54,751 bases of DNA from the NCBI GenBank assembly GCA_030695905.1, contig JAUYOL010000020.1, positions 1-54,751 on the forward strand, read 5' to 3'. The position numbers and the translations under genes are program-made. This DNA is from Candidatus Omnitrophota bacterium (GTDB taxonomy: Bacteria; Omnitrophota; Gorgyraeia; 2-01-FULL-45-10). A model generated the notes under the pieces. The model was not told the origin of the DNA and did not search any database. It was given only the letters and a program-made list of their open reading frames with translations. Shown here piece by piece: positions 38,101-54,751 of this stretch (positions are counted from its first letter, which is position 1; each line of letters begins with the position of its first letter).

Positions 38101-41100
38101 AAATAATGATACCACTGGGCGCGGTCAATTGGATCTATCGAAGCATCGTTGATCCAATTAAGCATTTCTTTAATTCGACGTCATGGGACGGTATTTATGT
38201 CGACACGTTGCGAAAGGCGGGTGTGAATTATCGTATATATAATCCCGATGGAAGTTTGAAATGTCAGGGTATCCTTAATAATTCCGGTAAATTTCAGGTA
38301 GTGATAAGGCTGTTCGATTCAAAAAATAATTTCCTGTGGTATGTTAAAAAATCCCATTCATTTCAGGTGGGCCTGTCCGGCCCATTACCGGCTCCGACCT
38401 CTATAAAAAATTTACCCTGGGGCGGCGAATGGTATGAATTTAAGAATGGGGAAGGCAATAGGCGCGCCGAATTTACCATGATTAGTTCTGCCGGTAAATG
38501 GGTGCCTTTGTACAATAAAGAATATGGCCAGCTGATAGTGGTTCATGTGGATTTGGAAAAAGGCTCAGAGGACGCCAAAGAAGATTTTTTTGTTATACGC
38601 CCGGACACATCGTCATCGTCATTGCTTATCGATAAGCAAGTCGGTAAGCTCGGCCTGGCGCAAGAGCACATATTCTACTTTTTAAATCGGAATTCTGTGC
38701 CTGTACCTATGAGACTTGCCTTCCCCGAATCTGTAGAAAATCCCATTACAGCGATGCAAGTTATAGGACTTGTTAAATCCGCGGTTGGTGCCGAAAAAAT
38801 AATCCGCACTGATGGCGCGCATGTTTATAAAAAATCGCAAAGTGTTTGGGCACTTGAACCCGACTTTACAGATGCAGATTACAAGAAAGCGATAGCTAAA
38901 CCTTTTATCCTGCCTGCCGGGAAAAAATACGAACCAAGGGTTTTTACTATGCATAAGTCAAGTGCGTCATTACCGGATTTTCTTATATGCGATCCCGGTA
39001 GCGAAGATATTGTCATAATCGAGATCGGAAGGCATGCAGTCTTATCGACTGCCAGGAAGATGCTAAATGGTTTGAGAGCGTTAAAGCTGGTAGGGCCGAA
39101 GATTTTGGGCGCTCGTAGTGGCATGCCTAAGACCGCTACCTTTTATTCGGAGGAAATAATTCATGGAGAAGATCCCGTGGATTATAAAATTGACGGCAAG
39201 CAGAATACGGCTATGAAAAGCGCGGTCAATACGTTGATAGAGACATCGCGTTTCGAACGGTCGCGTATTAAAAAAGGATATACACGGGATTTTGTGGCGA
39301 AGGCGCAGGGGATCGTTAATCTTGTAGAGGAATCTCACCAATATAGGAAAGACGCCATACCCTTGCCGGCCAATATCAACGTTAGGACAACATTCAGATT
39401 GTATAGTGACGACATTTCCTGTTTTGATGTTGTTTTGAAGTTTGCTAAACAAAAAGGTGGAAGGTACTACCTCAATAAGAACGGTATACAAATTTTAGCG
39501 AAGTCCATTACATTGCAGGAACTTTTTGGCGCGGCAAATCAGCGCCCAAGACCAGCATTGTCTTCACCAGGCAAGCCTTTCCTGGGTGCTTTCCAGAATA
39601 CAGCCATTCCGACCCTTGGGGTTTTGAAACAAAAAGATTTTAATGAAATTGCTTCTGTTTCCAGAGAGAGCCTCGCGGACATGCTGGCATTTTTGAAGAC
39701 TATAGAGTTTGCCACTGATGAAGGGATTGCCCACTTGTTGGATTCCGTTTTTACGCAGGGTCCGCCTGAATATGTAAAAAAGATGAAGGATACATTTTTC
39801 TACATGTTTATTCTTGCCAGAAGTAATTCCGCCTTCAAAGAGTTATTATTGCGATCACTCCAATCTTCAAATCTTGATCTAAAAGAAATAAAATTCGCGC
39901 TATCGGATGCCCTTCCGATAAATTCCGCCAGATACTTTGATGCCAATGCAAATACAGCAATAATCGTTTTAAACCGCGGATTCTTTGATATGGACGAACA
40001 CATTTACATGACCTCCCCGGAATTTAGTTCGGCTGTTTATCATATCCGAGCAGAAAGGATTATGCATGAATTAGCGCATAGCAACCTTCCTGATATGGTT
40101 CCAGGCGATTATAAACCCTCCGAAGAAGAACAAATAATTCAGAGCTTGGACAGGCCCCTGAAAATCGTTACGGATGAAATTGGCATGCAGGATAAGATAA
40201 AAAAGTTGAGGAGAGTATATCCCAAAGCAAAGGAAGCAATGCAGCATTCCGGACATATTTTTGATGCGGCGTTCAGATATAACCAGCAATCAGAGCCTTC
40301 GCTTCTTGCCAAAAGGATCAAGGTCTCTGAAATTCTATATCTTGGGGAAGATGCCGGACTTACAGATCTTACAGTTGACGTAGGGATGGAAGATCTGCCG
40401 GAAATATTATATATACTTGCCACTATAGTAAGGCCGTTTGATGCCTCTGGTGTCAAGGTGCAGCCTTCCGGTGCCGGGCCAGCTACTATTACAGTAATTG
40501 ACCGCATAGGTAACGCCCTCACAGAATATCAGTTTAAAGCCGGTGCGGATGAGTATAAAAGGTTAATTGATAATATAAAATCACGGGTGGATGCCGCAGA
40601 CGAGATAGTCAATAAACACCTTAATTTAACTCTTCATATAGCAGAAGGTGAGGGTGGAGAGGTAAAGATTGAAGGTGAGTCCCTGGCCAGCCGCTATCTT
40701 AGCACAATCAGCAACGGGGAAGATGACCCGGAAGAATTACGCGGTGCTAAAAAATTCGGGCCGGGAGCGGCAAGCAAGGATGACCCCGCGTTTTCTGCTG
40801 TAAAAAGCGCCTATCAGTATAAAGCAGAAATAGAAAATATACATGGTGGCCAGCAGCCGCTTACTATGCGTTTTTCTGAAGCAATGCGTGGAGGCGACTT
40901 GTATGTAGAGGGCATTACAGCGGTAAGGGATGGGCCCGGAACAGCCGCTATCGGGGATTTCAACTTTACAATACGTGCGGATAATACACTATGGCTTCCT
41001 ACGTATCATCCCATAGGTTTAATAGGCTCGGAATCATGGATAAAAAACCATAATAAAGGTATTAGCCAGACATTTCTGCAATGGGTCAATGATTATGCGC

Positions 41101-44100
41101 TGGCCCACAATGTGAATAAAATTATTATTGAAACATATGAGTTGTACGATCTTCACGCGTTTAGAAGATCTTTTGTGGATACAGTCAGGATCGGGGGCAG
41201 GGTTTACGATATAAAAGAATGCGAGCAAGCCGGCATATTTGACAGAGTAACGGCCGGGAGATTGATAGCTTATGATACTGAAAGAGGGCAGAGACTTGGA
41301 AAGATAGAGCTCGAACATGTTAAAGGGCAGGGGCCATCCTACGGGGTGCTATATTCGGAGAGCGAAAAGCTGGCAGTCGGAGATTCTATATGTATAGATA
41401 AATGTATAATACATCTTAATGACAAGCCGGTCGCATTCATCGGGCAGGCAGCCGATGACATATCAGTGGTATTTTCAGGAGCACCTAAACCTTTACAGCA
41501 AAAAGAAGAGCCCGCTCTATTGCCAGGGCCGACCGTAAAAACAGCAAGAAAGATTATGCCTTCCCGTGCAAGCAGGACATTAGTAGAACGCGCAGTAATA
41601 GCCATCCGGAGCATGGGCCATGGAGAAGAAATATTTGACGTTAGGCAAGACGTATTTAGTTTTAAGGACAGGATATTGATGGTAGGTGATGATGCTTGTA
41701 AGTTTGTCAATATATACAAAAAAGTCAAACATGAATGCTCGAAAGAGTTATTCGGTGACTTAGATGCCCTACTGGAAGATGTTCTTGCTGTTTCGAATAA
41801 TGGACCGGTGAGCATGAGTAAGGTAAAGCGGTGGATTTTTAGCTTAAGTAATATTTTGAAGCGCATCAAGATTAATAGGGCCAGGCTGAAATATATCCAA
41901 AATGAGCTAAGCTCGTATTTTGAAACGTATGAATCCGAGATGAATGTTCGCTTCAATACGCTCGATGACGTGGCGAAGCAATTAGATGCAGATATGTCAG
42001 ATTTGGAGAAAAGAAAAGAATCTGCTAAAGCGAAAAAAGAGGACAAGCTCATTGAAGAGTTGATTGGTCTTCAATGGCATATTCAAGCCGAACGCGCAGA
42101 AGTGCAAAAGCAGTTAGATGCTATGGTTGGCATTTATAGGAAAGAAACATCGAAAAAAGACGGCGACCTGTTACTTATCGACAGTCTTATATCGATGTTA
42201 ACTACGGATATATTAAGATTAGAAAATAGGCTTAGATTTGCTAAAGGCGAACCGCGCGCCAAAAAAGTTAGTATCGTTTCGATCTTGAAAAGAATTACCG
42301 CGGCCGATAATGTTTACCTGGATGAAACGCGCCTTCCTGTACTAAAGGTCAGAGGCGAGGATCTCTCTATCCGGTCCGCGCTTAGTAATATTGTCATAAA
42401 TGGGTGTCAGGCCGCAAGAGAGAAAGACGCACAAAAGGCCGGCGTAAAAGTTTCCTTGAGGCAGGATGGCAACTTCGCGGTGATAGAGATCGAAGATAAC
42501 GGAAACGGGATTCCAGATGATAAACTCAAGTTCGACTCACGAACCGGAAGGCTAACGCTATATAATCTAAATAATACTACCAAAAAGCGCGGGACAGGCT
42601 TAGGAACGACAGAGGCATGGTATGTCCTGGTGGAGGATATGGGCGGGACTATCGATATTAAGACAAAGCCCGGCGAAGGAACGAAATTTACGATCCGCCT
42701 GCCCCTTGCTCCTACTTCTAATATCCAACCGATGGGGCCGGGCGCCGCTAATGCAGATAGCCCTGAATTTTCGAATAATGGGGATGATATTTTACTTATC
42801 CCTGCGAAAGTACGAATGAAAGGAATGGAAGGCAGGACATGCAGGATTTTTGTGCCGCTGGAGTACCGACAATACTTACCGGAGTCCTTCCATGTTGCGG
42901 CAGAGGGGAATATACAAGGTGGATACGTTGTGGCAGAGGATAAGAATACAATGAGTGTATATTCCGAAAAAGACTATCGAGAGAGGCTCAAAGAAATCGA
43001 AGGATCGAATGATTATACGCGTTTACAGTTATTTACAACGCGTTCTTTAGCTATTAAAAAATTGAATCCAAAAGGTGAATTTGCCATCCCATCCGCATTG
43101 CTGCATAGCCCCGCGGGTCTCGTAAATAGTTCCATAACATTAGCTATTTACTTGAACTGGGATCCTCAAAGCGCGGCTATTAAGGCAATGATTGAGGAGA
43201 TGTCCGCGGTATTTGACGGGCATAAAATTAAAAACAAAAAATTATTAAGTGCTTTGATCGAGCCGGAAAAGCATCCGGGGCAAAGTAAGATATTGATCCA
43301 CATGGGTAACTATTTCTTTAAAATGCTTCTTCTGGATTATATCGCTACTAACTATCCAAATCTGGATAATTCACGCCTTCACCAATTTATCAATAAAGCG
43401 CAGGCCATATCGGAGAGGGACGCCATATTCAAGAAGCATGAATCAATTTATAAAAGATATATTAAGTTGCGCCCCGCCGTCCATTATTTAAAATGGAATT
43501 TTATTGCCGCACTGCTCGGTAGCCTTATAGCCGATACCGGTGATGCCAAAAATGCTTTTTTGATCGGCAGGCATTTTTCAAAGGATTATTTTGATAGTTT
43601 TAAGGTGGGTAGAAGTATCCCTGTAGCAAAAGCACGAAAAAATGAAAACAGGCCTTTTGCTTATCGCAGGGATATCTCAAAGATCGCGCCCATCATAAGA
43701 CCTTTTATAGATACATCCAAACCGTTACAGGAGATTTTGGAGACAGAGTTATCTCCTACAAATTCTGACAGAATAGGCTGCTCTGCATCAAGCTATACAA
43801 ATGCCGCGCTGGGTGACGCTATCCTGGATTTTGTTGTGACAACTGAAACGTGGGAGAAGTTCGGTTTTAAAGAAAAGGTTATTTTTTATCAAAATGCTCA
43901 CAGTAATCTGGTTAAAGGAGATTTTATCGGAAGTATTATGATGACGATATTGGGTAAGACGAAAGATGAATTAACCGCGGAAGACATTGAGCATGGGCAG
44001 AATCTTTTTGAGTCATTGGTGGCTATAGTCTACAAGTCAAACGGCGGACTCGAAGGCAATGGCCTGGCGAAGGCGCGCGAATTTGTTTTCAAAATGTTCA

Positions 44101-44753
44101 TAGATCATGCCAAGCACCGGCAGGCAGAGACAAAGCCCGCAGAAGAACGCTCGAATAATATTGCGGTCCTGCACAAGCTTTTTCAGGAAGCTAATATATC
44201 TCAAGCCTCGCGAGTATTAATATCAGAGAATTTACTTATAAGTGACGGAAATACTAATGAGTTGGATGAAGCCAGGCTGGCCCTAAAGCCGTTACTGGGG
44301 AGCGGCAAGGTGGCGATATTAAAGCCTGATGAGATACGAAGACATGCCATAAACCGCAGAGAAGACAAGTCAAAATTAGCCATTGTATTGAGCCGCGAAG
44401 ATTTTGAAAACAAAGCTATATGGAATGGTTCTGAAAAAGAGACTTCGCTTAAGGCGAGCCTTATTATCCTGGATGATAGGCTGACCGGCGCCAACTATCT
44501 CTATATAGAAGGGGTGATAGGGCTCGCGTACGCCCTTATGTCCAATAATAAACGGGCGATAAGCGCTTATTACCGGATATTGTCAGGCGCGGCCATAGAT
44601 GATGCGGTATTAAAGCTTCTCGACGATGGCCGTGATAATACTGTGGCATTTGCATTGCGGGCCATATTGAAGTTCAAGCCTACAGAGAAGATGAGTGAAG
44701 AAGAATTTAATAGTTATAGAATAACGATCGAAAGCGCTCTCATAAATGCATAA
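35142..44753 (+). CDS. Giant multidomain protein with signal peptide, methyltransferase and histidine-kinase-type ATPase
   Basis: Complete, 3203 residues, TTG start just after an in-frame TAA at 35130-35132. N-terminus: a basic segment, a hydrophobic stretch and AQDIVWANP, an export-type signal (residues 10-35). Then: SAM methyltransferase-like (about 85-240; ILEVGPGYGIF, RPGGVCIIDTN); long helical stretches; a membrane-type segment (about 877-912); a zinc-protease-like HELAH at 1642-1646; a folded unknown (about 1915-2105); coiled coil (about 2260-2370); and a HATPase domain (about 2377-2527) with N box NIVINGCQAA, G1 DNGNGIP and G2 GTGLGT. Helical C-terminus. Linkers contain GPGAA...PEFSNNG. 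No HisKA phosphoacceptor or receiver domain was recognised. Function unknown; it belongs with the giant genes of this lineage. Confidence 0.93.
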   Translation: MNTQIKPHRKFPLAIRVIAAILIAAFFAQDIVWANPDCLQIQLRAKQDNFKPSFYSQCLLRSTDLMAISRALELLGAEYQEKVNAKFGSNEMAFAYAEVFNTAKGVLRDFDNKKILEVGPGYGIFMHTMKKFSEETGVRLELTGLEKDEAKAKYARDEGKLNVITGDITKAPEQLKNEQFDAVVVRWPYFEIWGQKYILDYIKGCYEMTRPGGVCIIDTNVHYLAARAYSLERICFDAGFDVEGKKSYTDSKFLILRKPQSGRKRIHPVLRVLISGIVSSVQRAAEKSGKKKYGMIDISEINDADSLSDYIDKLEKKSGYGQLLDATRQEKEFLKPLFDLLFKKLESDFEDSGDFVALCKQVLKNSDAYDLRARLNNEDAALFNEFRKLKRKDKDIPVGLYGLLLFYLTANPKPYFRHLYKEIMKARPITELALGRKGISFRTRGDSIVHLYPMNLLHEGPDAVYRKSLNAMVGEKEPHDVRGKPDANDLKIKRAVEIGRRHVATYRRYSSEEREALEKRIANFEKKATVLELRDMKTFLLFSEPGLNIVRPIHAGRTRSAHYLSKRLIDTLKKDDDEDMKLLWILLNFSQGVVDTYEQMMKEEGSPQDIQKKLSGLNERFFELEDTHLLPPEKLKEKLAALMEEDTLIKYKDVFVAAENEEKEVDVLMQATHNVRDRLAIEEMEFAASLLRVLLVKQSENAIMMCRHLLYRYEGLGLHSEADRAYRNLDYLVSTLQAYDYGRLPFEFQEELIFTALAFERWDEVKNELKTLLTGKGYTRNVRVAELEILKNDIITADFISKLMHALHAQKAAATPEKLPIVEDAEKFAIKLLSDYSKNGFSALKEQDIDPDYDTPPGPMPARGQYKGNKGKELKDISAGVCILTSLCAIDYRIALIAGAALVVIGVLGFIDSVAGSPDHILKAIRNTPTFEFPFNGKVFMDYKREAEFDKNSQLRVVLAKGLLETDIFNKMQALIRAVKGSDKQVEIMIPLGAVNWIYRSIVDPIKHFFNSTSWDGIYVDTLRKAGVNYRIYNPDGSLKCQGILNNSGKFQVVIRLFDSKNNFLWYVKKSHSFQVGLSGPLPAPTSIKNLPWGGEWYEFKNGEGNRRAEFTMISSAGKWVPLYNKEYGQLIVVHVDLEKGSEDAKEDFFVIRPDTSSSSLLIDKQVGKLGLAQEHIFYFLNRNSVPVPMRLAFPESVENPITAMQVIGLVKSAVGAEKIIRTDGAHVYKKSQSVWALEPDFTDADYKKAIAKPFILPAGKKYEPRVFTMHKSSASLPDFLICDPGSEDIVIIEIGRHAVLSTARKMLNGLRALKLVGPKILGARSGMPKTATFYSEEIIHGEDPVDYKIDGKQNTAMKSAVNTLIETSRFERSRIKKGYTRDFVAKAQGIVNLVEESHQYRKDAIPLPANINVRTTFRLYSDDISCFDVVLKFAKQKGGRYYLNKNGIQILAKSITLQELFGAANQRPRPALSSPGKPFLGAFQNTAIPTLGVLKQKDFNEIASVSRESLADMLAFLKTIEFATDEGIAHLLDSVFTQGPPEYVKKMKDTFFYMFILARSNSAFKELLLRSLQSSNLDLKEIKFALSDALPINSARYFDANANTAIIVLNRGFFDMDEHIYMTSPEFSSAVYHIRAERIMHELAHSNLPDMVPGDYKPSEEEQIIQSLDRPLKIVTDEIGMQDKIKKLRRVYPKAKEAMQHSGHIFDAAFRYNQQSEPSLLAKRIKVSEILYLGEDAGLTDLTVDVGMEDLPEILYILATIVRPFDASGVKVQPSGAGPATITVIDRIGNALTEYQFKAGADEYKRLIDNIKSRVDAADEIVNKHLNLTLHIAEGEGGEVKIEGESLASRYLSTISNGEDDPEELRGAKKFGPGAASKDDPAFSAVKSAYQYKAEIENIHGGQQPLTMRFSEAMRGGDLYVEGITAVRDGPGTAAIGDFNFTIRADNTLWLPTYHPIGLIGSESWIKNHNKGISQTFLQWVNDYALAHNVNKIIIETYELYDLHAFRRSFVDTVRIGGRVYDIKECEQAGIFDRVTAGRLIAYDTERGQRLGKIELEHVKGQGPSYGVLYSESEKLAVGDSICIDKCIIHLNDKPVAFIGQAADDISVVFSGAPKPLQQKEEPALLPGPTVKTARKIMPSRASRTLVERAVIAIRSMGHGEEIFDVRQDVFSFKDRILMVGDDACKFVNIYKKVKHECSKELFGDLDALLEDVLAVSNNGPVSMSKVKRWIFSLSNILKRIKINRARLKYIQNELSSYFETYESEMNVRFNTLDDVAKQLDADMSDLEKRKESAKAKKEDKLIEELIGLQWHIQAERAEVQKQLDAMVGIYRKETSKKDGDLLLIDSLISMLTTDILRLENRLRFAKGEPRAKKVSIVSILKRITAADNVYLDETRLPVLKVRGEDLSIRSALSNIVINGCQAAREKDAQKAGVKVSLRQDGNFAVIEIEDNGNGIPDDKLKFDSRTGRLTLYNLNNTTKKRGTGLGTTEAWYVLVEDMGGTIDIKTKPGEGTKFTIRLPLAPTSNIQPMGPGAANADSPEFSNNGDDILLIPAKVRMKGMEGRTCRIFVPLEYRQYLPESFHVAAEGNIQGGYVVAEDKNTMSVYSEKDYRERLKEIEGSNDYTRLQLFTTRSLAIKKLNPKGEFAIPSALLHSPAGLVNSSITLAIYLNWDPQSAAIKAMIEEMSAVFDGHKIKNKKLLSALIEPEKHPGQSKILIHMGNYFFKMLLLDYIATNYPNLDNSRLHQFINKAQAISERDAIFKKHESIYKRYIKLRPAVHYLKWNFIAALLGSLIADTGDAKNAFLIGRHFSKDYFDSFKVGRSIPVAKARKNENRPFAYRRDISKIAPIIRPFIDTSKPLQEILETELSPTNSDRIGCSASSYTNAALGDAILDFVVTTETWEKFGFKEKVIFYQNAHSNLVKGDFIGSIMMTILGKTKDELTAEDIEHGQNLFESLVAIVYKSNGGLEGNGLAKAREFVFKMFIDHAKHRQAETKPAEERSNNIAVLHKLFQEANISQASRVLISENLLISDGNTNELDEARLALKPLLGSGKVAILKPDEIRRHAINRREDKSKLAIVLSREDFENKAIWNGSEKETSLKASLIILDDRLTGANYLYIEGVIGLAYALMSNNKRAISAYYRILSGAAIDDAVLKLLDDGRDNTVAFALRAILKFKPTEKMSEEEFNSYRITIESALINA
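42268..42722 (+). other. GHKL/HATPase domain within the giant protein
   Basis: N box near residue 2416, DNGNGIP from residue 2452, GTGLGT from residue 2484, and a final strand GEGTKFTIRLPL. These ATP-lid motifs are intact. Upstream coiled coil could act as a dimerisation helix, but a clear phosphorylatable His motif was not found. Confidence 0.88.
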
Positions 44754-47700
44754 TCAACAAAAAATTACAAGAGACAGAAGGCAAAATTTAAGGCCCGGGC
44801 TAAATGGGGTGGGGGAAACTTCCCCCCGAGTAGTGACCCTCATCCCAACCCGGGCTTTTATAATAAAAATAATATCAGTGATGCTGATAGCGGCGTTTGC
44901 CGCGCAGGATGTGGCGTGGGCGAATCCGGAAGTTTTTGAGCATCGGGCTTCGACGACTACTCTGCAGATCCCGTCTTTCTTCAGCCCCATGGACGCGCGG
45001 ACCGATAAGAATGTTCTCGAAATGACATTGCAATATATACTGAAGACGGTCGGCGATACAGAGCAGTTTAAATATCACCTTACGCCTAAAGTTGCCGGTG
45101 TAATGCTGGACTTCGAGTTTGATAAGGCGCGCAGAGAGGATGAGGACACGATAATCCCCTGCGGTGCCGCAAGCGACCGCTCAACCCGTCTATATGAGGC
45201 GGTTATAGGGTCCGATAATTCGATCAAAGAGTTGCGGCAAGCCAAAAAAGACAGAAGTGATAATGCTGCAGATAAAGGCAAAGTTAGCGCCGCGGTAAAT
45301 CCAATTAAAGAGCTGCCAACCCCAAAGCCCGCAGAACCTTCTGTGAAAATCCCTACAAAAGCCGAGTTTTTTGACATCGTAAATGAAAGAGCCATGAATA
45401 TTATTGCTCTTGCCGGAACTCATTTTATCGGCGGTAAAGCAATGGCACAGAGATCGCTCGATAAAATGATCCTGGATTTTAACAGAGAAACAAAGGCGGG
45501 GTATGTAAGTTCTTATGCGGTTGCCCTTACAAAAGTAGTTTTAGACAGGCACGGCGAAAAATTAAACTTTAACGCTATTATCAAACCTCTGGATGACAAG
45601 TTGCGCAAACATAAAGGGATATTTGTAAGAAAAAACTTACGAAAACACTTATTATGGGCCCTTGAATCCCAGGGTATTTTCGATTCGGATACCATAGAGC
45701 GGTTAAAGGCAGCCGCACAGGGAGGGGATTCCAGGATAAAATCTCTGAAAACTGTGCCTAACAAAACCCTTTCTTTCTTCAAGCGCTTCTGGCGCGATGA
45801 GCGGGGTGAATTATCATTGCCGCGGCTTATTACCAATCGCAGGAATCGCCACAATTTCGATCTTAAGGCAACGGTCAGCTATATCATTCCTTATTTTAAA
45901 GAACATAATAAGTTACCGGCCGAAACAGAACTTTCCAAAGCTCTTGGCCCTACTCAGCCGCTTTTTTCTAAACATATGCCAGAAATATTGGCTGAACTTG
46001 CGAGGCAAATTGAAGAGGAAGGATTTGACCCGGCTCTCCGCCAGGAGATAGGGAAAGCTATAAGCCTGCCTATACCACTCCAAAATGGCACGGATCCGGA
46101 TATAAAGAACATGATAGGGCGTTTAATCGATACGATCATATCTTTGCCTATCAGGAGTGAGGCATGTCTGGATCTTCTTACGGCGGCCATTAAGTTATTT
46201 AAAATAAAATCACCCAACTATGCACAGATACTCAGTTTGATTATTCAGGCACAACATAATTCTCCGACAATGAGTCAGGTAGGCGCTGTATATACTAATC
46301 CGGAGATGGTGAGAACGATAAATCGTATCAACAGGTCTTTTGAAGGATTGAAGAGCATTGTGGCGCAGGCCGGAGGAATAAAACTTCCCCCTGCAATAGC
46401 AAGAGGGAAAAAAGAAAAAGAACTGATTGAAAAGGCTATCGCGGAGCTGGAAGCGCCTGATTCCACAAGCGCAGGACTAATCGGGAAGTATCGGGTTGTT
46501 TCGGATATTTCCTTTATCCCGCACAATGAAAAAGATGTCGACAATGGGCAGATTGTGTTTACAGGTATAAATATAGAAGATCCTACAAGGCAGAAAATCT
46601 CTATTAGTATTGATGCCCAGAGGGCGCCACCGGGACTCTTCAGGCTTTTCCGGAGGACAAAACTAAGGAGAATAGACTGGCCTCTCGAAGATTTCCTGGA
46701 TAAGTTCCGCGGCCAAACCTTTCTTTTAAGCCCCAATCGTTACCATATAAACGGTATAGGCACAAGTAACTGTATTGCCATAGCGTATCCGCTTAAAAAT
46801 GACGATATAGCGTTGTTCCATGAAGTAGCTGAAGCGGCTGATTTGGATGTGTCCGGATACCTTAGAAGGGGCGATCTCGATGCTTATATAAATCGTGTCG
46901 ATAAGAAATACAGGCAAGACCCGGCTATGCTGCAGCATTATGCGTTAAGATTGTTCCAGCGCGAGATGTGGCCTAGGGACGATGGTCTCCTCACGCAGTT
47001 GATAAAAGAGATAGATTTGAACCATGGGGTAAGGCTGAAGAAGAGCGTTATTGTCAAGGGTATGTCGTTAAAAGAAAATGCATTTGCTGCAAGAGAAGCA
47101 TTTGAAGTGGTAGGTAACCAGATTCTTGCCATACTCGTGATCAAGGACAGGAAGGGGCTTGTAAATATAGAAGGCCCTGCTACCGAAGCAATTGAAGATC
47201 GGCTGACCCGCGCGTATAAGTTTATCGCACAACTCGAAAAAGAGGCTGCAGTAAATCCTGCAGGCATTATGACTCTTGATGAGATGATGAGAAGAAAATA
47301 TCACTATTTCATCGAAAACCACATAAAGGATTTGGAGGAATTGCCGAAACTTATAGTAAACGAAAATAAGATGTCTACTTCTCAACGCCAGCTTTTTATT
47401 GGAGATCAAGGCTTGATCCGTGGGGCAATAGATATTTTAAAAGAGCTAAAAGAGGTACTTGAAGTGAGCCTGGAACAGCCGGTACAGGCAACAAAGACAG
47501 TCTCGAATCCCAGGATGAACGGTTTTGTGTATCTGCCGCCGGTAGCAAAGATGTTGAAGGCTTTGTTCGCGGAAATCAGGATATGGTTTGAAGCGCTTTT
47601 TGATTTAGATATAGATGTTTGTAGAAAATTGCAGAATTCGATCGATTGTTTTAACAAGGTCTACATTCTCAATAGTCGGTTTATTGATTTCTTAGTTTTT

Positions 47701-50700
47701 CGTGAGACTACAGTCGAAGCCCTGCCTCAGATCGCGGCCTTTCTCAAGGAAAATAGACTCACAAGCAAGGAAAGCTTAGCGGATCTTGAGTCGAAGCAAC
47801 AGGATGCCAGACGAAATAAAGGCCGGGTGATAATAGATCTGGCAGAATCTATCCGCAAAGCGGACAGATTGGATATCTCCTACATATCACACCTTAAGTG
47901 GCGTCTTGCATCTTTGAAAAAACTATATCGTAGAAGTGCTTACCGGGAAGACCTGAACAATATAAGAAGGCGTGTTGGTATAGAAATAGGATATTGTAAA
48001 TGGGCCCGGGCAGGGATTGCTAAAGAAATACAAAGATTAAATAATTTAGATTTTGAATATCCGTTGCATGGTGAGGAAACGCAAAAGTTACGCGCGCTGA
48101 AAGAACTTGATAAGTGCGAAGAGGCTATCCTGGCAGCGTTATATCTTATCAGAAATAAGATAAACGAATTATCTCCTGAGAACACGACAGGCGCCAGTTC
48201 TTCATCTGCAATAGTTGACCGGCCGAATAATGCGGCAGAAAATAATCTTCACCCTGTTTATTCTTTGCTCAGGCGATTAGGCTATCCTGAAGCAGCTATA
48301 CCTGCTATTGCCAGCGGGCTAACTCAGTTACAGGATAAAATAGCTCAAGCCAATTTGCGGCAGAAATTAACAGCAAAAGATATTACTCGGCACATTTCAG
48401 CGCTGACCGAATTAATGAATCTATTTATGAGCGAAGGCTATTATGATCCCGGGAATCCGCATTCGCTCATTAAGGCATTGGTAAACGGTATCAATAAGGG
48501 AGATATTTTTGCCGAAATAGACCGTTCAATGATTTTTGGAAGACGAAAAGCAGGCCTAAAAAGGATCCTCTCCTCCTGTGTTTCAATATCTCAGTTAGCT
48601 TTGATTATTCTAAGCTTAGCGGGAGTTAATGCCAGAGTCGCTATCGCGCCTGACCACGCATTTATTTTTATACCTTTGGATAAAAATCATGCCTTATTTG
48701 CCGATTTTACCCTTGGCATAGTAACCGTGGTGGATTTATCTCATTACCAGGAAGAAGGCGCGTACTTAGTCTTAAAACCGGAGTTTAGAATTTCTCCCGA
48801 GAATGAAGCTTATGTTCAAGAACGGCTTAAACAAAGAATATCTATAAGGCAAAACGAATTATTGCATTCGTTCTATTTCTCTATTCAAATAACCAATGGT
48901 TATATCTTAATACCTTCTTTATTAATGAATCTGGGAAGTGTTTATTATAAATTGGGTAAATATGCCAAAGCTATTAAAAAATATAAAGAAGCCATTAAAC
49001 TTAATCCGAAGGACGCAGAAATACACTATGACCTGGGAATCGTTTATTATAAATTAGGTAACTACTATGAGGCAACTGTAGAATACGAAAAAGCCGCTGA
49101 TCTTAATCCAAAACATGCCAAAGCCCGCAATAACCTGGGGAATATTCATTATTCATTTGGTAGCTACGATAAGGCTGTCAAAGCATACAAAGATGCCATT
49201 AGTATTAATCCAGGGGAGGTAATGTTTCACAATAATCTGGGGGATGCCTATGCTAAATTAGGCAACTATACCGGGGCCATCGCAGAATTCCAAAAAACCA
49301 TTGAGCTTAATTCGGGCTATGCCGGAGCCTGCTATAATCTAGGAAAGGTTTACTATAAACAAGGAAAATACAATGAGGCAATTAGGGCATGGGCAATGGC
49401 AATAGTTAGTTTGATATTAGAGTTAAGATTTATGAGTGTCGTAAAGGCAGCATTAATAAGACAAAATCCAGAAAGCGCTGTGCCAGCTATAAAGTCAGGG
49501 GTGATAGCCGCACAGCAAAGATTTGCGCGCCAGCAACAAAGGTTCGATGATTTAGCCGATGGCAGGATTCCGGCTCGTGAAGATATGAGTTTTGCAAATG
49601 CGCCGGACCGTTGGGTCCGTTTCGCCTCCGGCCCCAGCCCGACAAAGCTGGAAGAAAAGATAGAAGAGCTTATCGAATTGATTATACCGCTGCCTATCTA
49701 TAATAGAGATATATGTTTGGACCTTCTTGAAGGAGCTTCTAAATTATGCGATAAATATTCGGATGAGCTTACAAAGATACTAAGTCTGATTATCCAGGCA
49801 GAAAATATATTTCCGACCAAAATGCAGATAGAGATTGCCAATGTTAAACGCGGAACGATGGTCAAAATGCGCAGGGCCAGACAGTATTTTGAAAACTTGA
49901 AGATAGTTTTAAACAAAAGACTTAAAAAAGGAGAAAAAGGTGAGGTGGTGGAGTCGCCAAGTCCGGACATAGGAAATCAGCCTGATATACCGACTCTTTT
50001 GCGAAAACCGCAAAAAACTCGCGATGATTGGATAACATTACTAAAAAAGATGGCAAATTTTCTACCCGAAGGTGAAAAACCTACTGTAAGAAATATTATT
50101 AAATTATCCGGAGGGCAACTGCGATATAGCACCGTAACAGGGGTCTTGCGCAGACATAACATTCCTTATGCTGATGTCGGGCTTATAAACGAAAAACTTA
50201 AGGTTCCCGCGCTGCAAAGTTTCGCCGGAGCGCTGCCGCCGCCGAATGCGAAACTCCATCCCGAGCCAGAAGGTACATCGTATCAGGGAGATTTTAATAA
50301 TGATGGCGATGGTTCTGGTGGGATAAAATATAATATCAGTATTCCCGAGATCGGGATAGAGAACTTCGAGGTGCAATGGCCTGATATTAAAAGGACCATG
50401 GAGGAAACAGGGGAATATATTACACCGGAACAGGAAAGAATCGTTTTTCATGCCCTTCATGCTAAGAATCTTACCCTGGATCAAAGGAACGAAATTCGCT
50501 ATTTTATTATTGAGAAATACCGATGGTTGATCGATACAGTTATCATGAAATATGGAATGCACTTCTATGATGAGCAAAGAGTCGCTGATGCCCGGGATGA
50601 AGGGGATTTAGGGATCTTGCGCGCAATGGTCACGTTTGAGCCCGAAAGAGGCAATAGGTTTTCCAGCTACGCTGATAATTGGATACGTAACGCAATCCAA

Positions 50701-53700
50701 AGATCCCCTCTCTTAAGACAATTAATTCCTACGTCGGAATATGCAGAAGAGAAGATGACGAGATATAGGTATGCAAAGCAAAAATTATGGCAAGAACTGG
50801 AGCGTAATCCGACATTGGATGAAATTGCGCGCGAGATGAGGATATCGACAGAAAAAGTGCAGGAGATTGAATCTGACTTGCCAAGAATAAGATCTTTAAA
50901 TATTTCCACTACCGGCCAGAAAAAAAGAGCAACTATGCGCAGGAACCTTGTGCCGGCAAGGGAGGAAGCCATATTAACAGAAGGATCGCTGGAGAATCTC
51001 GAAGACTATTTAGGCAAGCTTGCTCCCCTTGAGGAAAAAGTTATTCGAATGCGTTACGGTTTAGGGGTAGGTCCGGACAGGGGAGTTTCTCATACATTGG
51101 AAGAGATAGGGAAAGCTATAGGCGTAACGAGAGAATGGGTCCGTCGGATTGAGGCTAAGGCGTTATGGAAGATAAGAAGAATGATGCTTGAATCAAGACT
51201 CGCCAATGATATTAATCGGATCGCGGTAAAGCGGGAAGAGGGAAATAATGCAGTTAAAGCGCCTCAAAATGAAACGAGTCCGCGTAAGAAGTACCATCGG
51301 CTTGATCTTGCTGGAACAGTTGAATATATTATTGGTTGTTTCAAAAATGATCCAACGTGTATAAATTTGCCGGGTCCGCTGGCGCTTTCAAAGGTTCTGG
51401 GACCAACGCAACCTGTTTTTTCTAACCAATACGCTAAGATATTAGCCGCGCTTAAAGAGCAAATTGAAACAGAAGGGTTTGATGCGGTATTGCGTGAGCG
51501 AATAAACAAAGCTATCGAAAAAAAGGTTGCCAAAAAGGCAGTTGCTATGCGCGTGACTGATGATCCGGTTTTGCCAGGAGCGCTGCCGCCGCCGAATGCG
51601 AAACTCCATCCCGAGCCCGAAGGTGTATCGTATCAGGGGGATTTTAAGCAATCACCTGTGCAGGAGAAATGGGAAGCCAGCGTAGAAGGATCCGGGACAG
51701 GTACCATAATAGGAAAATTAAGTTTTTCTTCAGGCGAAAAAGAGCTGGGTTACATAACATTACAAATTGAAAAAGAAGGCATCAGTGTGTATAGTTGCAC
51801 CGGCCTTAATGTTATTTTAAAAGGCAATGGCCTGGGAGAAAAGCTATTACTTAGGGGCTTGGAACTGGCCAAGCGAGAAGCGCGCAATAGGAGGTTACAG
51901 CCTAAATGGGCGCTTGTTTATTATACCTACACAGGAAAAAGTGATGATACAAAATTGGAAGCGCTAACGCATATTCTTACGAAATTGGACTTTGCATGCT
52001 ATTCCATAGGACAAGACCAAATAAATGACCCGGGCTTGAGGACATTATTAGCCCGGCATGCAAACCAGGGCTCGGCTAACCGATGCTGGTTTCAGGATCT
52101 GGATAAAATTAGTGAAATCCAGGAAGGCCCGTGGCCGGACCAGCCGCTCAACGGGTTCGGCGCCGTCGGGCCGATAAAGCCGGGGGATGAGGTACCGGAT
52201 TTCTGGCAAGGTCAATGGTCCCGCGTTTCGTCACATTTAGTCGATTCAAATGGGTGGTTTGGCGTTGCGGCGTATCCTTTAGTTGTGCGCAATTTTATTA
52301 TCGGACAGAGCGAGCTGGAAGCAAAAAGACAGAAAAGAAAAGTCAGAATTATTGACTTGGGGGCGGGTGCGAATCTCTACATTGCCAGAAAAATTCATGA
52401 GGAATTTACAAGCGAAAGTCTTGACGCTGAAATCCACGCTTTGGATCCTGCCAGGAAAGAAGATGTAGAGCGGTTATCAACATTACAAAGTGTAATTTAT
52501 CACTCCGGACAAATGGAAAATCCCGCAGGGATAGAACCAAACTCTATGGATATCGCCGTTTCAGCTTTTGCGCTGGACTACACGGACATGCCCGCATCAT
52601 TAAAACAGATTAACCGTATGCTTTCTGATGATGGACGTGCGTTTTTAGTTGTTCATCATCCCGAGTCGGATTCTATTGAACATGTCCGCAGCTATTTAAA
52701 TGATATCAAGAATGCATACAAAAATTTAAATCAAGTATTAGAATTTTTGACCAATAATACAGGAGAGATACCTATATACAGCATAAGGTTCGAGCTGGGT
52801 AGGGTTGTAAATTCAACTTACATTTACCAGTCTCACATCACTCAAATCGTATCCCAGATCGACGATTATATGAGAGGAGAAGAGAATGAACAGGCTAGGG
52901 CAAAGCTGATCGGCGAGATTAGGAAGACCATCGATATTGTCAAAGCCGAGATTATGTCCGGGGACCGCTTGTTATCCAATCTGTTCACGAGTAAGCGGGA
53001 TGTTAAAAGATTTTTTTCCGAAGAAGGTTATGAAGTCGAGGTTTTATTATTGAAAGAAACGAAAGATTATGACGGAGATGGTTATGTCGAAGTTCCGGAA
53101 GCATACGGGATTATCCTTACTAAAAGCGCAAAAATCGATTCTAGCCAGACCGGGCCGTGGCCGGACCAGCCGCTCAATGGTATCGGCGCCGTCGGGCCGA
53201 TAAAGCCTGGTGATGAAGATAGGACATCCCAGAATGTACCGCCTCTGTCCCCGGCTATTAAAAAATCAAGAGAAGCGCTATTAGAAGTTTTCCGTAACGT
53301 TAACCAAATTGGAACGTTGGAAGAAATACGTGCTATGGATCGTTCTGAATTTGCTGAACGGCTAGGATTTAAGAATCTTGGCGATACGAGTGCTCGGCCG
53401 TTCAGAGGTTTCCTAACCTACATTTCCGAGAAAGACTGGATTGAATTTAAAAGATTGAGAAAGAATGTCAAACAGGGAAGAGTGAAAGATGATAGAGAGA
53501 TCTCTTTTTCTCAGTTCAGAATTGATGGGCATGGATTTTATTATGATAAAGCAAGGATCGAAAAATGGTTAGAACGAGAAAGCTTTTCCGCTGGTAAACC
53601 TTTGTTTGTTCATGAATTACTAGAGCAGGCAAGTTTGAAAGCAGGACTGACTTCCGATATGTTCCGCTATTTTAATGACGACAATCTGATGGTGCTAGAA

Positions 53701-54751
53701 GGTGAGCTAAGATTTGCAAGTCTTATGGGAAAAAGAGACTTACAGATTGCTCAAAAAGGAGTTCAGGATAAAATCGAATATGCCGATACTCTTCTCAACA
53801 GTCCTTTTAAATCCAGTTTTTTTAAAATTTTTTCCAGATTTAGTAATAGCAAAGAATCTAGAAAGAGCCTGTTTAGAATCAAGCGTTCATTAGAAAGATT
53901 GCTGAAGAAATCTGGAAGTGAATTGTTTCATCAAACTTCCCTAAGTTTATGGCGTATTGCTGGTGAAAATAGAGACAGCGGCCGTTTCCAAGAATCGCCA
54001 CCCGTCGGTGGCCCGACCTCAGCGCAAGCCAAAAGCGGAGTATCTCAGAATGACACATCCCAAAATAACACGGAGGAGCAGGTCTCGGAGTCACGCCGGG
54101 CCGGTGTGGTTGAGATACGTCATAAAAAGCGCGGAATCCTTTCAGATAAAGATAAGAAATATCGAGATCAGCTTTGCGAGTCTATCTATAGGTCCTTTGT
54201 AAAGGCCGGAGCACAACTATTGGAAAAAGATATAAAAAGATATTCGGATATTGTATCAAATACCCTTGTAAGATATGATGCCGAGTCGCTACAAAGCCTT
54301 GTGGAAAGAGACATATTGACCACAGATGAAATAAATATGATAACAGAGCGCGTATCTTTTGATACAGCCGGCCTGGTCAAAAAGGTTATAACAATAATAG
54401 ACGCCTATAGAAAGGCATCCCTAACTGATAGAGCCAAAGATAAGCTCCTTGCCCATTTCTTTACAATAGAAGAGATCGACAGATTGAAGCATGATTTTCC
54501 TGATCTACAGCCTTCAATCATTCTGCATGCTTGCACACACAATCCCAAAGACCCTCGCGCATTCTTGAGAAACCTGATCAAGACGCAAGATGAGATATCG
54601 AAAGAGCTTGAGTTTAAGGACCTACTGCCTTCAGTCATTCTGCATGCTTGCACAAACAATCCCAAAGACCCTCGCGCATTCTTAAGAAACCTGATCAAAG
54701 CGCAAGCTGAGATATCGAAAGAACCTGAGTTTAAGGACCTACTGCCTTCAG
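44746..54751 (+). CDS. Giant multidomain protein, N-terminal part (3' end outside window)
   Basis: One open frame with no stop from 44746 to the right edge, at least 3335 codons. The start is unresolved. ATG 44746 overlaps the previous stop (ATGCATAA); GTG 44833 would give a conventional-length signal peptide; GTG 44878 and ATG 44881 lie inside it. Signal: RAFIIKIISVMLIAAFAAQD then VAWANPE. By nt position: unknown domain B1 (45856-46062); domain A1 (46108-46260); long helical part; transglutaminase-like segment (about 48500-48780); TPRs (48925-49420); A2 (49645-49800); sigma-70 core (50318-51190); B2 (51301-51516); GNAT (about 51661-52080); SAM methyltransferase (about 52200-52960; IIDLGAGANLY); further helical region; 39-residue repeats from 54496. 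Role unknown. Confidence 0.9.
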   Translation, partial: MHNQQKITRDRRQNLRPGLNGVGETSPRVVTLIPTRAFIIKIISVMLIAAFAAQDVAWANPEVFEHRASTTTLQIPSFFSPMDARTDKNVLEMTLQYILKTVGDTEQFKYHLTPKVAGVMLDFEFDKARREDEDTIIPCGAASDRSTRLYEAVIGSDNSIKELRQAKKDRSDNAADKGKVSAAVNPIKELPTPKPAEPSVKIPTKAEFFDIVNERAMNIIALAGTHFIGGKAMAQRSLDKMILDFNRETKAGYVSSYAVALTKVVLDRHGEKLNFNAIIKPLDDKLRKHKGIFVRKNLRKHLLWALESQGIFDSDTIERLKAAAQGGDSRIKSLKTVPNKTLSFFKRFWRDERGELSLPRLITNRRNRHNFDLKATVSYIIPYFKEHNKLPAETELSKALGPTQPLFSKHMPEILAELARQIEEEGFDPALRQEIGKAISLPIPLQNGTDPDIKNMIGRLIDTIISLPIRSEACLDLLTAAIKLFKIKSPNYAQILSLIIQAQHNSPTMSQVGAVYTNPEMVRTINRINRSFEGLKSIVAQAGGIKLPPAIARGKKEKELIEKAIAELEAPDSTSAGLIGKYRVVSDISFIPHNEKDVDNGQIVFTGINIEDPTRQKISISIDAQRAPPGLFRLFRRTKLRRIDWPLEDFLDKFRGQTFLLSPNRYHINGIGTSNCIAIAYPLKNDDIALFHEVAEAADLDVSGYLRRGDLDAYINRVDKKYRQDPAMLQHYALRLFQREMWPRDDGLLTQLIKEIDLNHGVRLKKSVIVKGMSLKENAFAAREAFEVVGNQILAILVIKDRKGLVNIEGPATEAIEDRLTRAYKFIAQLEKEAAVNPAGIMTLDEMMRRKYHYFIENHIKDLEELPKLIVNENKMSTSQRQLFIGDQGLIRGAIDILKELKEVLEVSLEQPVQATKTVSNPRMNGFVYLPPVAKMLKALFAEIRIWFEALFDLDIDVCRKLQNSIDCFNKVYILNSRFIDFLVFRETTVEALPQIAAFLKENRLTSKESLADLESKQQDARRNKGRVIIDLAESIRKADRLDISYISHLKWRLASLKKLYRRSAYREDLNNIRRRVGIEIGYCKWARAGIAKEIQRLNNLDFEYPLHGEETQKLRALKELDKCEEAILAALYLIRNKINELSPENTTGASSSSAIVDRPNNAAENNLHPVYSLLRRLGYPEAAIPAIASGLTQLQDKIAQANLRQKLTAKDITRHISALTELMNLFMSEGYYDPGNPHSLIKALVNGINKGDIFAEIDRSMIFGRRKAGLKRILSSCVSISQLALIILSLAGVNARVAIAPDHAFIFIPLDKNHALFADFTLGIVTVVDLSHYQEEGAYLVLKPEFRISPENEAYVQERLKQRISIRQNELLHSFYFSIQITNGYILIPSLLMNLGSVYYKLGKYAKAIKKYKEAIKLNPKDAEIHYDLGIVYYKLGNYYEATVEYEKAADLNPKHAKARNNLGNIHYSFGSYDKAVKAYKDAISINPGEVMFHNNLGDAYAKLGNYTGAIAEFQKTIELNSGYAGACYNLGKVYYKQGKYNEAIRAWAMAIVSLILELRFMSVVKAALIRQNPESAVPAIKSGVIAAQQRFARQQQRFDDLADGRIPAREDMSFANAPDRWVRFASGPSPTKLEEKIEELIELIIPLPIYNRDICLDLLEGASKLCDKYSDELTKILSLIIQAENIFPTKMQIEIANVKRGTMVKMRRARQYFENLKIVLNKRLKKGEKGEVVESPSPDIGNQPDIPTLLRKPQKTRDDWITLLKKMANFLPEGEKPTVRNIIKLSGGQLRYSTVTGVLRRHNIPYADVGLINEKLKVPALQSFAGALPPPNAKLHPEPEGTSYQGDFNNDGDGSGGIKYNISIPEIGIENFEVQWPDIKRTMEETGEYITPEQERIVFHALHAKNLTLDQRNEIRYFIIEKYRWLIDTVIMKYGMHFYDEQRVADARDEGDLGILRAMVTFEPERGNRFSSYADNWIRNAIQRSPLLRQLIPTSEYAEEKMTRYRYAKQKLWQELERNPTLDEIAREMRISTEKVQEIESDLPRIRSLNISTTGQKKRATMRRNLVPAREEAILTEGSLENLEDYLGKLAPLEEKVIRMRYGLGVGPDRGVSHTLEEIGKAIGVTREWVRRIEAKALWKIRRMMLESRLANDINRIAVKREEGNNAVKAPQNETSPRKKYHRLDLAGTVEYIIGCFKNDPTCINLPGPLALSKVLGPTQPVFSNQYAKILAALKEQIETEGFDAVLRERINKAIEKKVAKKAVAMRVTDDPVLPGALPPPNAKLHPEPEGVSYQGDFKQSPVQEKWEASVEGSGTGTIIGKLSFSSGEKELGYITLQIEKEGISVYSCTGLNVILKGNGLGEKLLLRGLELAKREARNRRLQPKWALVYYTYTGKSDDTKLEALTHILTKLDFACYSIGQDQINDPGLRTLLARHANQGSANRCWFQDLDKISEIQEGPWPDQPLNGFGAVGPIKPGDEVPDFWQGQWSRVSSHLVDSNGWFGVAAYPLVVRNFIIGQSELEAKRQKRKVRIIDLGAGANLYIARKIHEEFTSESLDAEIHALDPARKEDVERLSTLQSVIYHSGQMENPAGIEPNSMDIAVSAFALDYTDMPASLKQINRMLSDDGRAFLVVHHPESDSIEHVRSYLNDIKNAYKNLNQVLEFLTNNTGEIPIYSIRFELGRVVNSTYIYQSHITQIVSQIDDYMRGEENEQARAKLIGEIRKTIDIVKAEIMSGDRLLSNLFTSKRDVKRFFSEEGYEVEVLLLKETKDYDGDGYVEVPEAYGIILTKSAKIDSSQTGPWPDQPLNGIGAVGPIKPGDEDRTSQNVPPLSPAIKKSREALLEVFRNVNQIGTLEEIRAMDRSEFAERLGFKNLGDTSARPFRGFLTYISEKDWIEFKRLRKNVKQGRVKDDREISFSQFRIDGHGFYYDKARIEKWLERESFSAGKPLFVHELLEQASLKAGLTSDMFRYFNDDNLMVLEGELRFASLMGKRDLQIAQKGVQDKIEYADTLLNSPFKSSFFKIFSRFSNSKESRKSLFRIKRSLERLLKKSGSELFHQTSLSLWRIAGENRDSGRFQESPPVGGPTSAQAKSGVSQNDTSQNNTEEQVSESRRAGVVEIRHKKRGILSDKDKKYRDQLCESIYRSFVKAGAQLLEKDIKRYSDIVSNTLVRYDAESLQSLVERDILTTDEINMITERVSFDTAGLVKKVITIIDAYRKASLTDRAKDKLLAHFFTIEEIDRLKHDFPDLQPSIILHACTHNPKDPRAFLRNLIKTQDEISKELEFKDLLPSVILHACTNNPKDPRAFLRNLIKAQAEISKEPEFKDLLPS
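44793..44861 (+). terminator. Terminator-like nested hairpin at the giant-gene junction
   Basis: GCCCGGG (44793-44799) pairs with CCCGGGC (44849-44855), followed by TTTTAT. Inside, GGGGG and CCCCC flank AAACTT. It would end transcription of the 35142 gene, yet it lies within the open frame of the next gene, so the start of that gene may be downstream of it. Confidence 0.5.
45856..46260 (+). other. Duplicated small domains B1 and A1 in the giant protein
   Basis: B1 (45856-46062) contains ALGPTQPLFS and ARQIEEEGFDPALRQ; it matches B2 at 51301-51516 (VLGPTQPVFS, KEQIETEGFDAVLRE). A1 (46108-46260) contains ACLDLLTAAIKLF and ILSLIIQAQ; it matches A2 at 49645-49800 (ICLDLLEGASKL, ILSLIIQAE). These are diverged internal duplications of unknown folds. 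Confidence 0.8.
48500..48780 (+). other. Transglutaminase-like segment in the giant protein
   Basis: ILSSCVSISQLALIILSLAG gives a candidate Cys, PDHAFIFIPL a candidate His and ALFADFT a candidate Asp, in the order and spacing of transglutaminase-core-2-like domains, followed directly by TPRs as is common for that class. Assignment is by eye. Confidence 0.5.
48925..49420 (+). other. TPR array in the giant protein
   Basis: Five 34-residue tetratricopeptide repeats with the canonical NLGxxYYKLGKYxxAIxxYxxAIxLNP pattern, for example NLGSVYYKLGKYAKAIKKY and DLGIVYYKLGNYYEA. It is a protein-protein interaction scaffold. Confidence 0.92.
50227..50295 (+). repeat. Linker cassette GALPPPNAKLHPEPEG, copy 1
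   Basis: 69 bp nearly identical to 51577-51645. It sits immediately before the sigma-70 core. Confidence 0.88.
50318..51190 (+). other. Sigma-70 core domain embedded in giant protein (copy 2)
   Basis: Homologous along its length to 2841-3710. Region 2 reads FEPERGNRFSSYADNWIR, then NAIQR; region 3 has NPTLDEIAREMRISTEKVQ; region 4 has EEIGKAIGVTREWVRRIEAK. It diverges from copy 1 mainly in regions 2.4 and 3, the promoter-contacting parts, which would predict different DNA preferences if active. Confidence 0.9.
51577..51645 (+). repeat. Linker cassette GALPPPNAKLHPEPEG, copy 2
   Basis: Near-identical to 50227-50295; it sits immediately before the GNAT domain. Confidence 0.88.
52136..52188 (+). 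repeat. Short linker repeat DQPLNGFGAVGPIKP, copy 2
   Basis: Between the GNAT and methyltransferase domains; matches 3901-3953 and 53163-53215. Confidence 0.85.
52201..52960 (+). other. SAM-dependent methyltransferase domain in the giant protein
   Basis: Motif I is VRIIDLGAGANLYIARKI; MDIAVSAFALDY and MLSDDGRAFLVVHHPE follow as motifs II and III of a class I methyltransferase. Substrate unknown. Confidence 0.8.
53163..53215 (+). repeat. Short linker repeat DQPLNGIGAVGPIKP, copy 3
   Basis: Follows the methyltransferase domain; same peptide as 3901-3953. Confidence 0.85.
54496..54751 (+). repeat. 39-residue coding tandem repeat, right end (two units plus part)
   Basis: Units 54496-54612 and 54613-54729, then a partial unit to the edge; period 117 bp. 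The first unit is more diverged (FPDLQPSIILHACT). The array runs off the window and matches the array at 3-215. Confidence 0.92.
54611..54751. repeat. Terminal direct repeat, right copy
   Basis: Identical over 141 bases to 1-141. Length exceeds one 117-bp repeat unit, so it is a 1.2-unit match within the array. Confidence 0.95.

What the first reader, a model, noticed from the sequence alone, without database searches (positions are those of the whole stretch)
50318..51190. Second sigma-70 core, diverged in promoter-contacting parts
The second copy keeps the leading segment (IKYNISIPEI and ITPEQERIVFHALHAKNLTL) almost unchanged, but differs in the -10-contacting and region 3 parts. Two sigma cores sharing a family-specific N-terminal extension define a new domain architecture rather than an accidental fusion.
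Basis: partly seen in the sequence, partly recalled or inferred. Interest (0 to 1): 0.75.

Follow-up and report, generated by a model that had tools for sequence, protein, structure and literature searches.

The report
Sigma-like modules in exported giant protein
The stretch encodes one of two copies of a module descended from a bacterial sigma factor (the protein that tells RNA polymerase where genes start), here buried inside a roughly 5,000-residue mosaic protein that appears to be exported; relatives of the module occur only in such proteins across one uncultured phylum and have mostly lost the usual promoter-reading residues, so it is probably not an ordinary sigma factor.

Summary
Window 50320-51180 encodes a sigma-70-type module, 61% identical to a second one at 2841-3689. 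The leading segment is 92% identical; regions 3 and 4 are 40-49%. Pairwise dN/dS is about 0.2, so both copies are constrained.

Three things change the reading. (1) The two copies are probably in one gene: the contig ends overlap by 141 bp inside a tandem repeat and join into a 4,957-codon open frame. Synteny in relatives and IS sequence at other contig ends suggest the contig was misjoined at an IS element. (2) The extension is probably a diverged region 1.2 (weak evidence). Its specific form was found in about 2% of Omnitrophota genomes, in frames of 1,668 to 57,756 codons plus one 542-codon frame with a signal peptide; no ordinary stand-alone sigma factor searched has it. (3) All 8 such frames with a visible start begin with a Sec-type signal peptide. 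Across 16 modules, fold residues persist but promoter-contact residues are lost more than chance (p about 0.007).

Most likely: a sigma-derived module carried as variable cargo in an exported mosaic protein, no longer a standard promoter reader. Export and activity are untested.

The parts
50320..51180 (+). Sigma-70-type module B (the finding): extension + regions 2, 3, 4; aa 1859-2145 of ORF B
   Evidence: BLASTP to copy A 61% id; Pfam r2/r3/r4 above gathering scores
50320..50499 (+). Leading segment ('extension'), probably diverged region 1.2; 92% identical between the two copies
   Evidence: strong profile hits only in giant frames and one 542-codon signal-peptide frame; weak profile match to region 1.2
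50509..50703 (+). Sigma region 2 of module B (Pfam PF04542)
50749..50904 (+). Sigma region 3 of module B (Pfam PF04539)
51010..51177 (+). Sigma region 4 of module B (Pfam PF04545)
2841..3689 (+). Sigma-70-type module A (first copy); would be aa about 4236-4518 of the joined protein
44746..54750 (+). ORF B, 5' part of the giant gene (3,335 codons, runs off the contig)
3..5009 (+). ORF A, probably the 3' part of the same gene (1,668 codons, 5' open)
   Evidence: synteny and contig ends
44851..44928 (+). Signal-peptide-like segment of ORF B (RAFIIKIISVMLIAAFAAQDVAWANP)
   Evidence: with cytosolic and stand-alone sigma controls
54488..54751 (+). 117-bp (39-aa) tandem repeat at the contig's right end
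1..216 (+). Same 117-bp tandem repeat at the contig's left end; bases 1-141 identical to 54611-54751
50220..50297 (+). In-frame linker repeat ALPPPNAKLHPEPEG, left of module B
   Evidence: 91% DNA identity to 51570-51647
51570..51647 (+). In-frame linker repeat ALPPPNAKLHPEPEG, right of module B
35142..44753 (+). Upstream giant gene U (3,203 codons, signal peptide, HATPase); its ends match the giant gene next to cinA in relatives
33708..34890 (-). IS element (transposase frame 33785-34933) at which the contig is probably misjoined
   Evidence: its two ends open contigs C26 and C4 of the same genome

Best explanation
The finding is a sigma-70-derived module, one of two in a single mosaic protein of about 5,000 residues in an Omnitrophota bacterium. 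The protein starts with a Sec-type signal peptide, so the module is most likely carried out of the cytoplasm as part of the protein. It belongs to a phylum-restricted sigma branch found in such proteins, swapped in and out of them as cargo. Shown: the two modules, their constraint, restriction to giant or signal-peptide-bearing frames, the signal-peptide-like N-termini, and loss of canonical contact residues while fold residues are kept. Inferred: the two copies lie in one gene; the protein is really exported; the module no longer opens promoters for the cell's own RNA polymerase and instead works as a binding module (DNA or RNA-polymerase type) outside the cytoplasm or in a partner cell.
For: Two modules, 61% identical; dN/dS about 0.21 overall and about 0.1 in the first 33 residues, with no amino-acid change in the next 27. 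Extension: 14 hits in 10 of 384 phylum genomes, all in frames of 1,668 codons or more; the class search adds one 542-codon frame; 42 genomes of other phyla none. Tree: the 17 extension-type modules split from all stand-alone sigmas at SH-aLRT 96. 8 of 8 extension-bearing frames with a visible start have a hydrophobic N-terminal stretch of signal-peptide type, 7 of 8 with a net basic stretch before it (best 12-residue hydropathy 1.9-3.1; 56 stand-alone sigmas at most 1.6). No further transmembrane-like segment in the G184, G412 and G405 proteins. Contact residues in 16 modules versus 51 stand-alone: Q437 1/16 v 51/51, W433 6/16 v 50/51, N409 3/16 v 51/51, E407 4/16 v 50/51, R584 6/16 v 50/51; DNA-contact loss p=0.007 against other invariant sites. 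The frames also carry cytosol-type domains (GNAT, nitroreductase, methyltransferase, SNF2 helicase, DnaJ).
Against: Signal peptides were called by a simple hydropathy rule, not a trained predictor. Purifying selection and retention of some contacts in A/B (D403, E407, Y430, W434, R436, R588) would also fit a working sigma with changed specificity. A few modules (G343, and the separate canonical-type units in G365) keep most promoter contacts. B has two hydrophobic stretches (aa 1274, 1548) between the signal peptide and the module that could be transmembrane and put it back inside. No expression, export or binding data. The AlphaFold model is poor (mean pLDDT 51).
Confidence: 0.45

Rival explanations
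1. A working alternative sigma factor with altered promoter choice, tethered in a giant membrane-linked protein and released by proteolysis, as in sigma factors fused to membrane anti-sigma parts.
For: Purifying selection on both copies; fold and several core and DNA residues kept in A and B; a family-specific Q at the T440 position in 9 of 16 modules, as if specificity had shifted rather than decayed; fusions regulated by proteolysis are known in ECF sigmas (PMC8999054).
Against: N409 and E407 core contacts and the W433/Q437 promoter contacts are mostly lost across the family; the signal peptide precedes the module, and in G184 nothing else in the protein looks able to hold it on the cytoplasmic side.
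Confidence: 0.25
2. Gene debris: the giant frames collect fragments of ordinary genes, and the sigma modules are remnants with little or no function.
For: Contact residues lost, modules shortened in some genomes (region 3 lacking or unmatched in G358, G413 and G405), patchy presence, and the giant gene beside cinA in three relatives lacks the module.
Against: dN/dS about 0.2, with the extension near-invariant despite synonymous change; long stop-free frames; the same extension and, outside this window, the same C-terminal DHxDVxLVEV tail recur across families.
Confidence: 0.17
3. The exported protein is an effector, and the sigma-like modules act on DNA or RNA polymerase of a neighbouring host or prey cell.
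For: Signal peptides plus cytosol-type, cofactor-dependent domains in the same proteins, with ATP- and acetyl-CoA-binding motifs present by pattern; variable cargo between conserved ends; Omnitrophota are proposed symbionts or predators with giant proteins (PMC10066038).
Confidence: 0.13

Closest known systems
Sigma-70 family factors, group 1 and 2 (RpoD, SigA, RpoS)
   Same: Regions 2, 3 and 4 by Pfam, region 1.2-like segment before 2.1; PDB matches to SigA/RpoD at E about 1e-40
   Different: Embedded in a giant protein behind a signal peptide; on a separate branch of the tree; canonical core- and promoter-contact residues mostly lost in the family
Non-canonical ECF sigma factors fused to membrane or extracytoplasmic domains (ECF48, ECF52, ECF53, ECF36, IutY)
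   Same: Sigma domain fused to other domains, some of them membrane-linked (PMC8999054)
   Different: ECF sigmas lack region 3 (general knowledge), and in the ECF48/52/53 and IutY types the added parts are C-terminal to a cytoplasmic sigma domain; here region 3 is present and the module follows a signal peptide
Omnitrophota giant ORFs (Seymour et al. 2023, PMC10066038)
   Same: Very long open frames in the same phylum, proposed cell-surface or symbiosis role
   Different: No sigma factor content is mentioned in the passages of that paper found here, and no paper found joins the two; these frames carry sigma modules and cytosol-type enzymes

Membership tests
Sigma-70 superfamily (by fold) | Regions 2, 3, 4 in order, at or above curated cut-offs | tested here: met
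   B: r2 25.4/24, r3 40.9/25.3, r4 54.5/24.1 bits; A: 24.0/24, 38.0/25.3, 50.7/24.1
Working group 1/2 sigma factor | Core RNA polymerase contact residues in region 2.2 (D403, E407, N409) | tested here: inconclusive
   A and B keep D403 and E407 but have E/D at N409; family 4/16 for E407 and 3/16 for N409 versus 50-51 of 51 stand-alone
Working group 1/2 sigma factor | -10 reading and melting residues W433, W434, Q437 | tested here: not met
   A/B: W433 F/N, W434 W/W, Q437 S/N; family 6/16, 8/16, 1/16
Working group 1/2 sigma factor | Groups with stand-alone RpoD/SigA-type proteins in a tree | tested here: not met
   17 extension-type modules split off at SH-aLRT 96 (quick tree with long branches)
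Working group 1/2 sigma factor | Binds core and starts transcription | not testable with these tools
   needs biochemistry
ECF sigma factors | Regions 2 and 4 only, no region 3 | tested here: not met
   region 3 found in A and B
Sec-exported proteins | N-terminal signal peptide: basic n-region, hydrophobic core, AxA-type site | tested here: met
   8 of 8 extension-bearing frames with a visible start (net basic n-region in 7 of 8); controls negative; simple rule, not a trained predictor
Sec-exported proteins | Actual translocation | not testable with these tools
   needs localisation data
Omnitrophota giant ORFs | Open frame longer than 20 kb (the limit used in PMC10066038) | tested here: not met
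   joined frame about 14.9 kb plus an unknown number of collapsed repeat units; a relative with the same module reaches 57,756 codons

The most novel reading that the evidence does not exclude
An uncultured bacterial phylum exports sigma-70-derived modules inside giant mosaic proteins, and these act on DNA or transcription in another cell: a sigma factor turned into an effector.
Probability: 0.12. Interest if true: 0.92.

Novelty: new variant of a known kind. Interest (0 to 1): 0.6.

Why it matters
Sigma factors are known as cytoplasmic subunits of RNA polymerase. A distinct branch of them that lives in signal-peptide-bearing mosaic proteins, keeps the fold and loses the promoter contacts, suggests that the sigma fold has been put to another use. 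It also offers a handle on what the unexplained giant proteins of Omnitrophota do: a defined, testable module with a known ancestral activity, in contrast to the mostly unannotated rest.

Tried and rejected
Circular 54.6-kb element: the contig ends overlap by exactly 141 bp and would close in frame, but the middle holds chromosomal genes with a single recA and relatives have the block inside the chromosome; rejected in favour of a misjoin at an IS element whose ends open contigs C4 and C26. Two separate giant genes sharing a repeat: considered until synteny in G011, G012, G018 and G184 pointed to one gene. Extension as a wholly new domain: not favoured, since it lies where region 1.2 lies with LTxEEE in register; but hhalign gives only score 17.7 and 1 of 60 column shuffles reached that, so homology is suggested, not shown. 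Genome-contig scan with the 3-row alignment found nothing although the genome of RIFCSPLOWO2_12_FULL_50_11 does hold a relative, so that scan is not sensitive. AlphaFold on the two window copies gave pLDDT 51, too poor for a fold search. Viral-contig scan with the extension could not run. Literature searches found no report of sigma factors in Omnitrophota giant proteins; subscription journals are not held.
Full report
What is there. The window is the whole of contig C20 of a 1.82-Mb, 43-contig genome. RecA places it with Candidatus Omnitrophota: the best hits by E-value are Omnitrophota records at 66-69% identity, and the highest identity of all, 72%, is another Omnitrophica record. Most of the window is ordinary chromosome: recA, alaS, his and trp genes, lepA, pgsA, plsY (my reading of the translations). 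Giant open frames lie at both ends: U (35142-44753, 3,203 codons), B (44746 to the right end, 3,335 codons) and A (left end to 5009, 1,668 codons). The finding is the sigma-70-type module of B at 50320-51180; its sister is at 2841-3689 in A. They are 61% identical over 287 columns, and Pfam regions 2, 3 and 4 reach or exceed curated cut-offs in both.

How the two copies differ. The leading 60 residues are 92% identical; region 3 is 40%, the 3.2 linker 44% and region 4 49%. Synonymous divergence is high throughout (dS 0.7 to above 1). dN/dS is about 0.21 overall and about 0.1 in the first 33 residues, with no amino-acid change at all in the next 27. So the leading segment is held by purifying selection, not only by recent copying, though its dS is somewhat lower than elsewhere. 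These are single pairwise estimates near saturation.

One gene, not two. The first and last 141 bases of the contig are identical and lie in a 117-bp tandem repeat that occurs nowhere else in the genome. Joining the ends through it gives one stop-free frame of 4,957 codons. Taken literally this is a 54.6-kb circle, which cannot be the chromosome. Synteny explains it. In relatives G011 and G018 the block thpR/cinA-recA-...-lepA-pgsA-plsY is linear. In G011, G012 and G018 a giant signal-peptide gene lies between the pgsA-like/pgpA-like genes and cinA/thpR, and its two ends match the ends of U. In G011 and G014 the block is followed by the dnaG-rpoD neighbourhood. In our genome, contig C26 starts near the pgpA-like gene and contig C4 starts near dnaG-rpoD; the first 141 bases of each match (140/141) opposite ends of the IS element at 33708-34890 of the window. 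The simplest order is C26(pgpA)-IS-U-B+A-thpR-cinA-recA...plsY-IS-C4, with the contig misjoined at the IS. Then both sigma modules sit in one protein, at about aa 1859-2145 and 4236-4518. This is inference from assembly and synteny; I put it at about 0.85.

A sigma branch of its own. A profile of the extension (nine sequences) was searched in 384 genomes of the phylum: 14 hits in 10 genomes, every one in an open frame of 1,668 to 57,756 codons. The earlier class search with three sequences also found G184, where the module is in a 542-codon frame; its three weakest hits (G014, G036, G190; E 4e-4 to 3e-3) were in short frames, and the one checked (G036) showed no similarity to A or B. Of 49 genomes reached through RecA loci only one was positive, Omnitrophica bacterium RIFCSPLOWO2_12_FULL_50_11, with the same coordinates as G393; none of 42 outside Omnitrophota was. 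Outside this window the modules share a C-terminal tail DHxDVxLVEV that stand-alone sigmas lack. A quick maximum-likelihood tree separates the 17 extension-type modules from stand-alone RpoD and RpoD-like proteins at SH-aLRT 96; the separate canonical-looking units in G365 fall nearer the stand-alone proteins. Several rows are long-branched, so branching inside the group is unsure.

The extension. It sits directly before region 2.1, and LTxEEE aligns with the LLTxEEE of region 1.2, with about six extra residues before region 2.1. Profile-profile comparison gives score 17.7, matched by 1 of 60 column shuffles. I read it as a diverged region 1.2, probable but not shown.

Contact residues. Against E. 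coli RpoD numbering, 16 modules were compared with 51 stand-alone Omnitrophota sigmas. Fold residues such as G408, G411, L412, G424, F427, I435, R562, G564 and Q589 are kept. Q437 remains in 1/16 (51/51 stand-alone), W433 in 6/16, W434 in 8/16, R584 in 6/16, E407 in 4/16, N409 in 3/16; T440 is always replaced, by Q in 9/16. DNA-contact positions lost identity more than random sets of stand-alone-invariant positions (p=0.007; -10 set p=0.01; core set p=0.05). Which residues make contacts is taken from established sigma-70 structures and genetics, from my own knowledge.

Export. All eight extension-bearing frames with a visible 5' end (B, G184, G358, G393, G403, G405, G412, G413) begin with a hydrophobic core followed by an AxA-type site, preceded in seven of eight by a net basic stretch; best 12-residue hydropathy 1.9-3.1. 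Ten soluble housekeeping proteins of the window score at most 1.26 and 56 stand-alone sigmas at most 1.6. In G184, G412 and G405 no other transmembrane-like stretch was found; B has two candidates at aa 1274 and 1548, before the module. The same proteins carry cytosol-type domains: GNAT and nitroreductase in A, SNF2 helicase and DnaJ in G343, methyltransferase in G405.

Shuffling. Module B lies between two in-frame 78-bp linker repeats, 91% identical in DNA, at 50220 and 51570; ORF A has 119-bp linkers 98% identical. The linkers occur only in ORFs A and B of this genome. Giant genes at the cinA slot of three relatives have related ends but different middles and no sigma module. The sigma module thus looks like exchangeable cargo.

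Mechanism. Best supported: a sigma-derived binding module within an exported mosaic protein, kept by selection but no longer a standard promoter reader (0.45). Rivals: a working sigma with shifted specificity (0.25), debris (0.17), an effector acting in another cell (0.13). The paper on Omnitrophota giant ORFs proposes surface and symbiosis roles and notes that their functions are obscure (PMC10066038); sigma factors fused to membrane parts are known among ECF types (PMC8999054) but differ in architecture.

Noticed in passing
window 33708-34890: IS element (transposase frame 33785-34933) whose two ends also open contigs C26 and C4 of the same genome; the contig join plsY-IS-U is probably a misjoin.
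   Followed up: yes
window 35142-44753: Giant gene U has a signal peptide and a HATPase with its usual motifs; its first and last stretches match the giant gene next to cinA in three relatives, while the middles differ: conserved ends, variable cargo.
   Followed up: partly
window 50220-50297, 51570-51647, 52119-52190, 53145-53216, 3891-3956, 270-388, 2217-2335: In-frame linker repeats nearly identical in DNA between diverged modules, found only in ORFs A and B of this genome; possible recombination points for module exchange.
   Followed up: partly
L063 and G358:C2: A 57,756-codon open frame in a relative that holds an extension-type sigma module lacking region 3 and begins with a signal-peptide-like segment.
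   Followed up: partly
L062:2-10744 and L061: Genome G365 carries at least eight sigma-like units in giant frames, of two kinds: extension-type and canonical region-1.2-type.
   Followed up: partly
L061:6897-6899: A single in-frame TAA separates two giant frames (2,571 and 2,143 codons) in G365; nonsense change, sequencing error or a true gene boundary not resolved.
   Followed up: no
L046, L061, L062, L063, L064, L065: Conserved tail DHxDVxLVEV after region 4.2 in the relatives' modules, absent from both window copies.
   Followed up: partly
L113, L114, L115, L198, L199 N-termini: Giant proteins of other families share an N-terminal domain with an I/LQDAH motif soon after the signal peptide (EEGYEGPVPT follows in three); weak Pfam match to Cofac_haem_bdg (ChaN/Tiki) in one.
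   Followed up: no
L008:7655-15151 (G000:C43): Another signal-peptide giant frame of this genome (2,499 codons) with a region-4-only sigma piece near its C-terminus.
   Followed up: no
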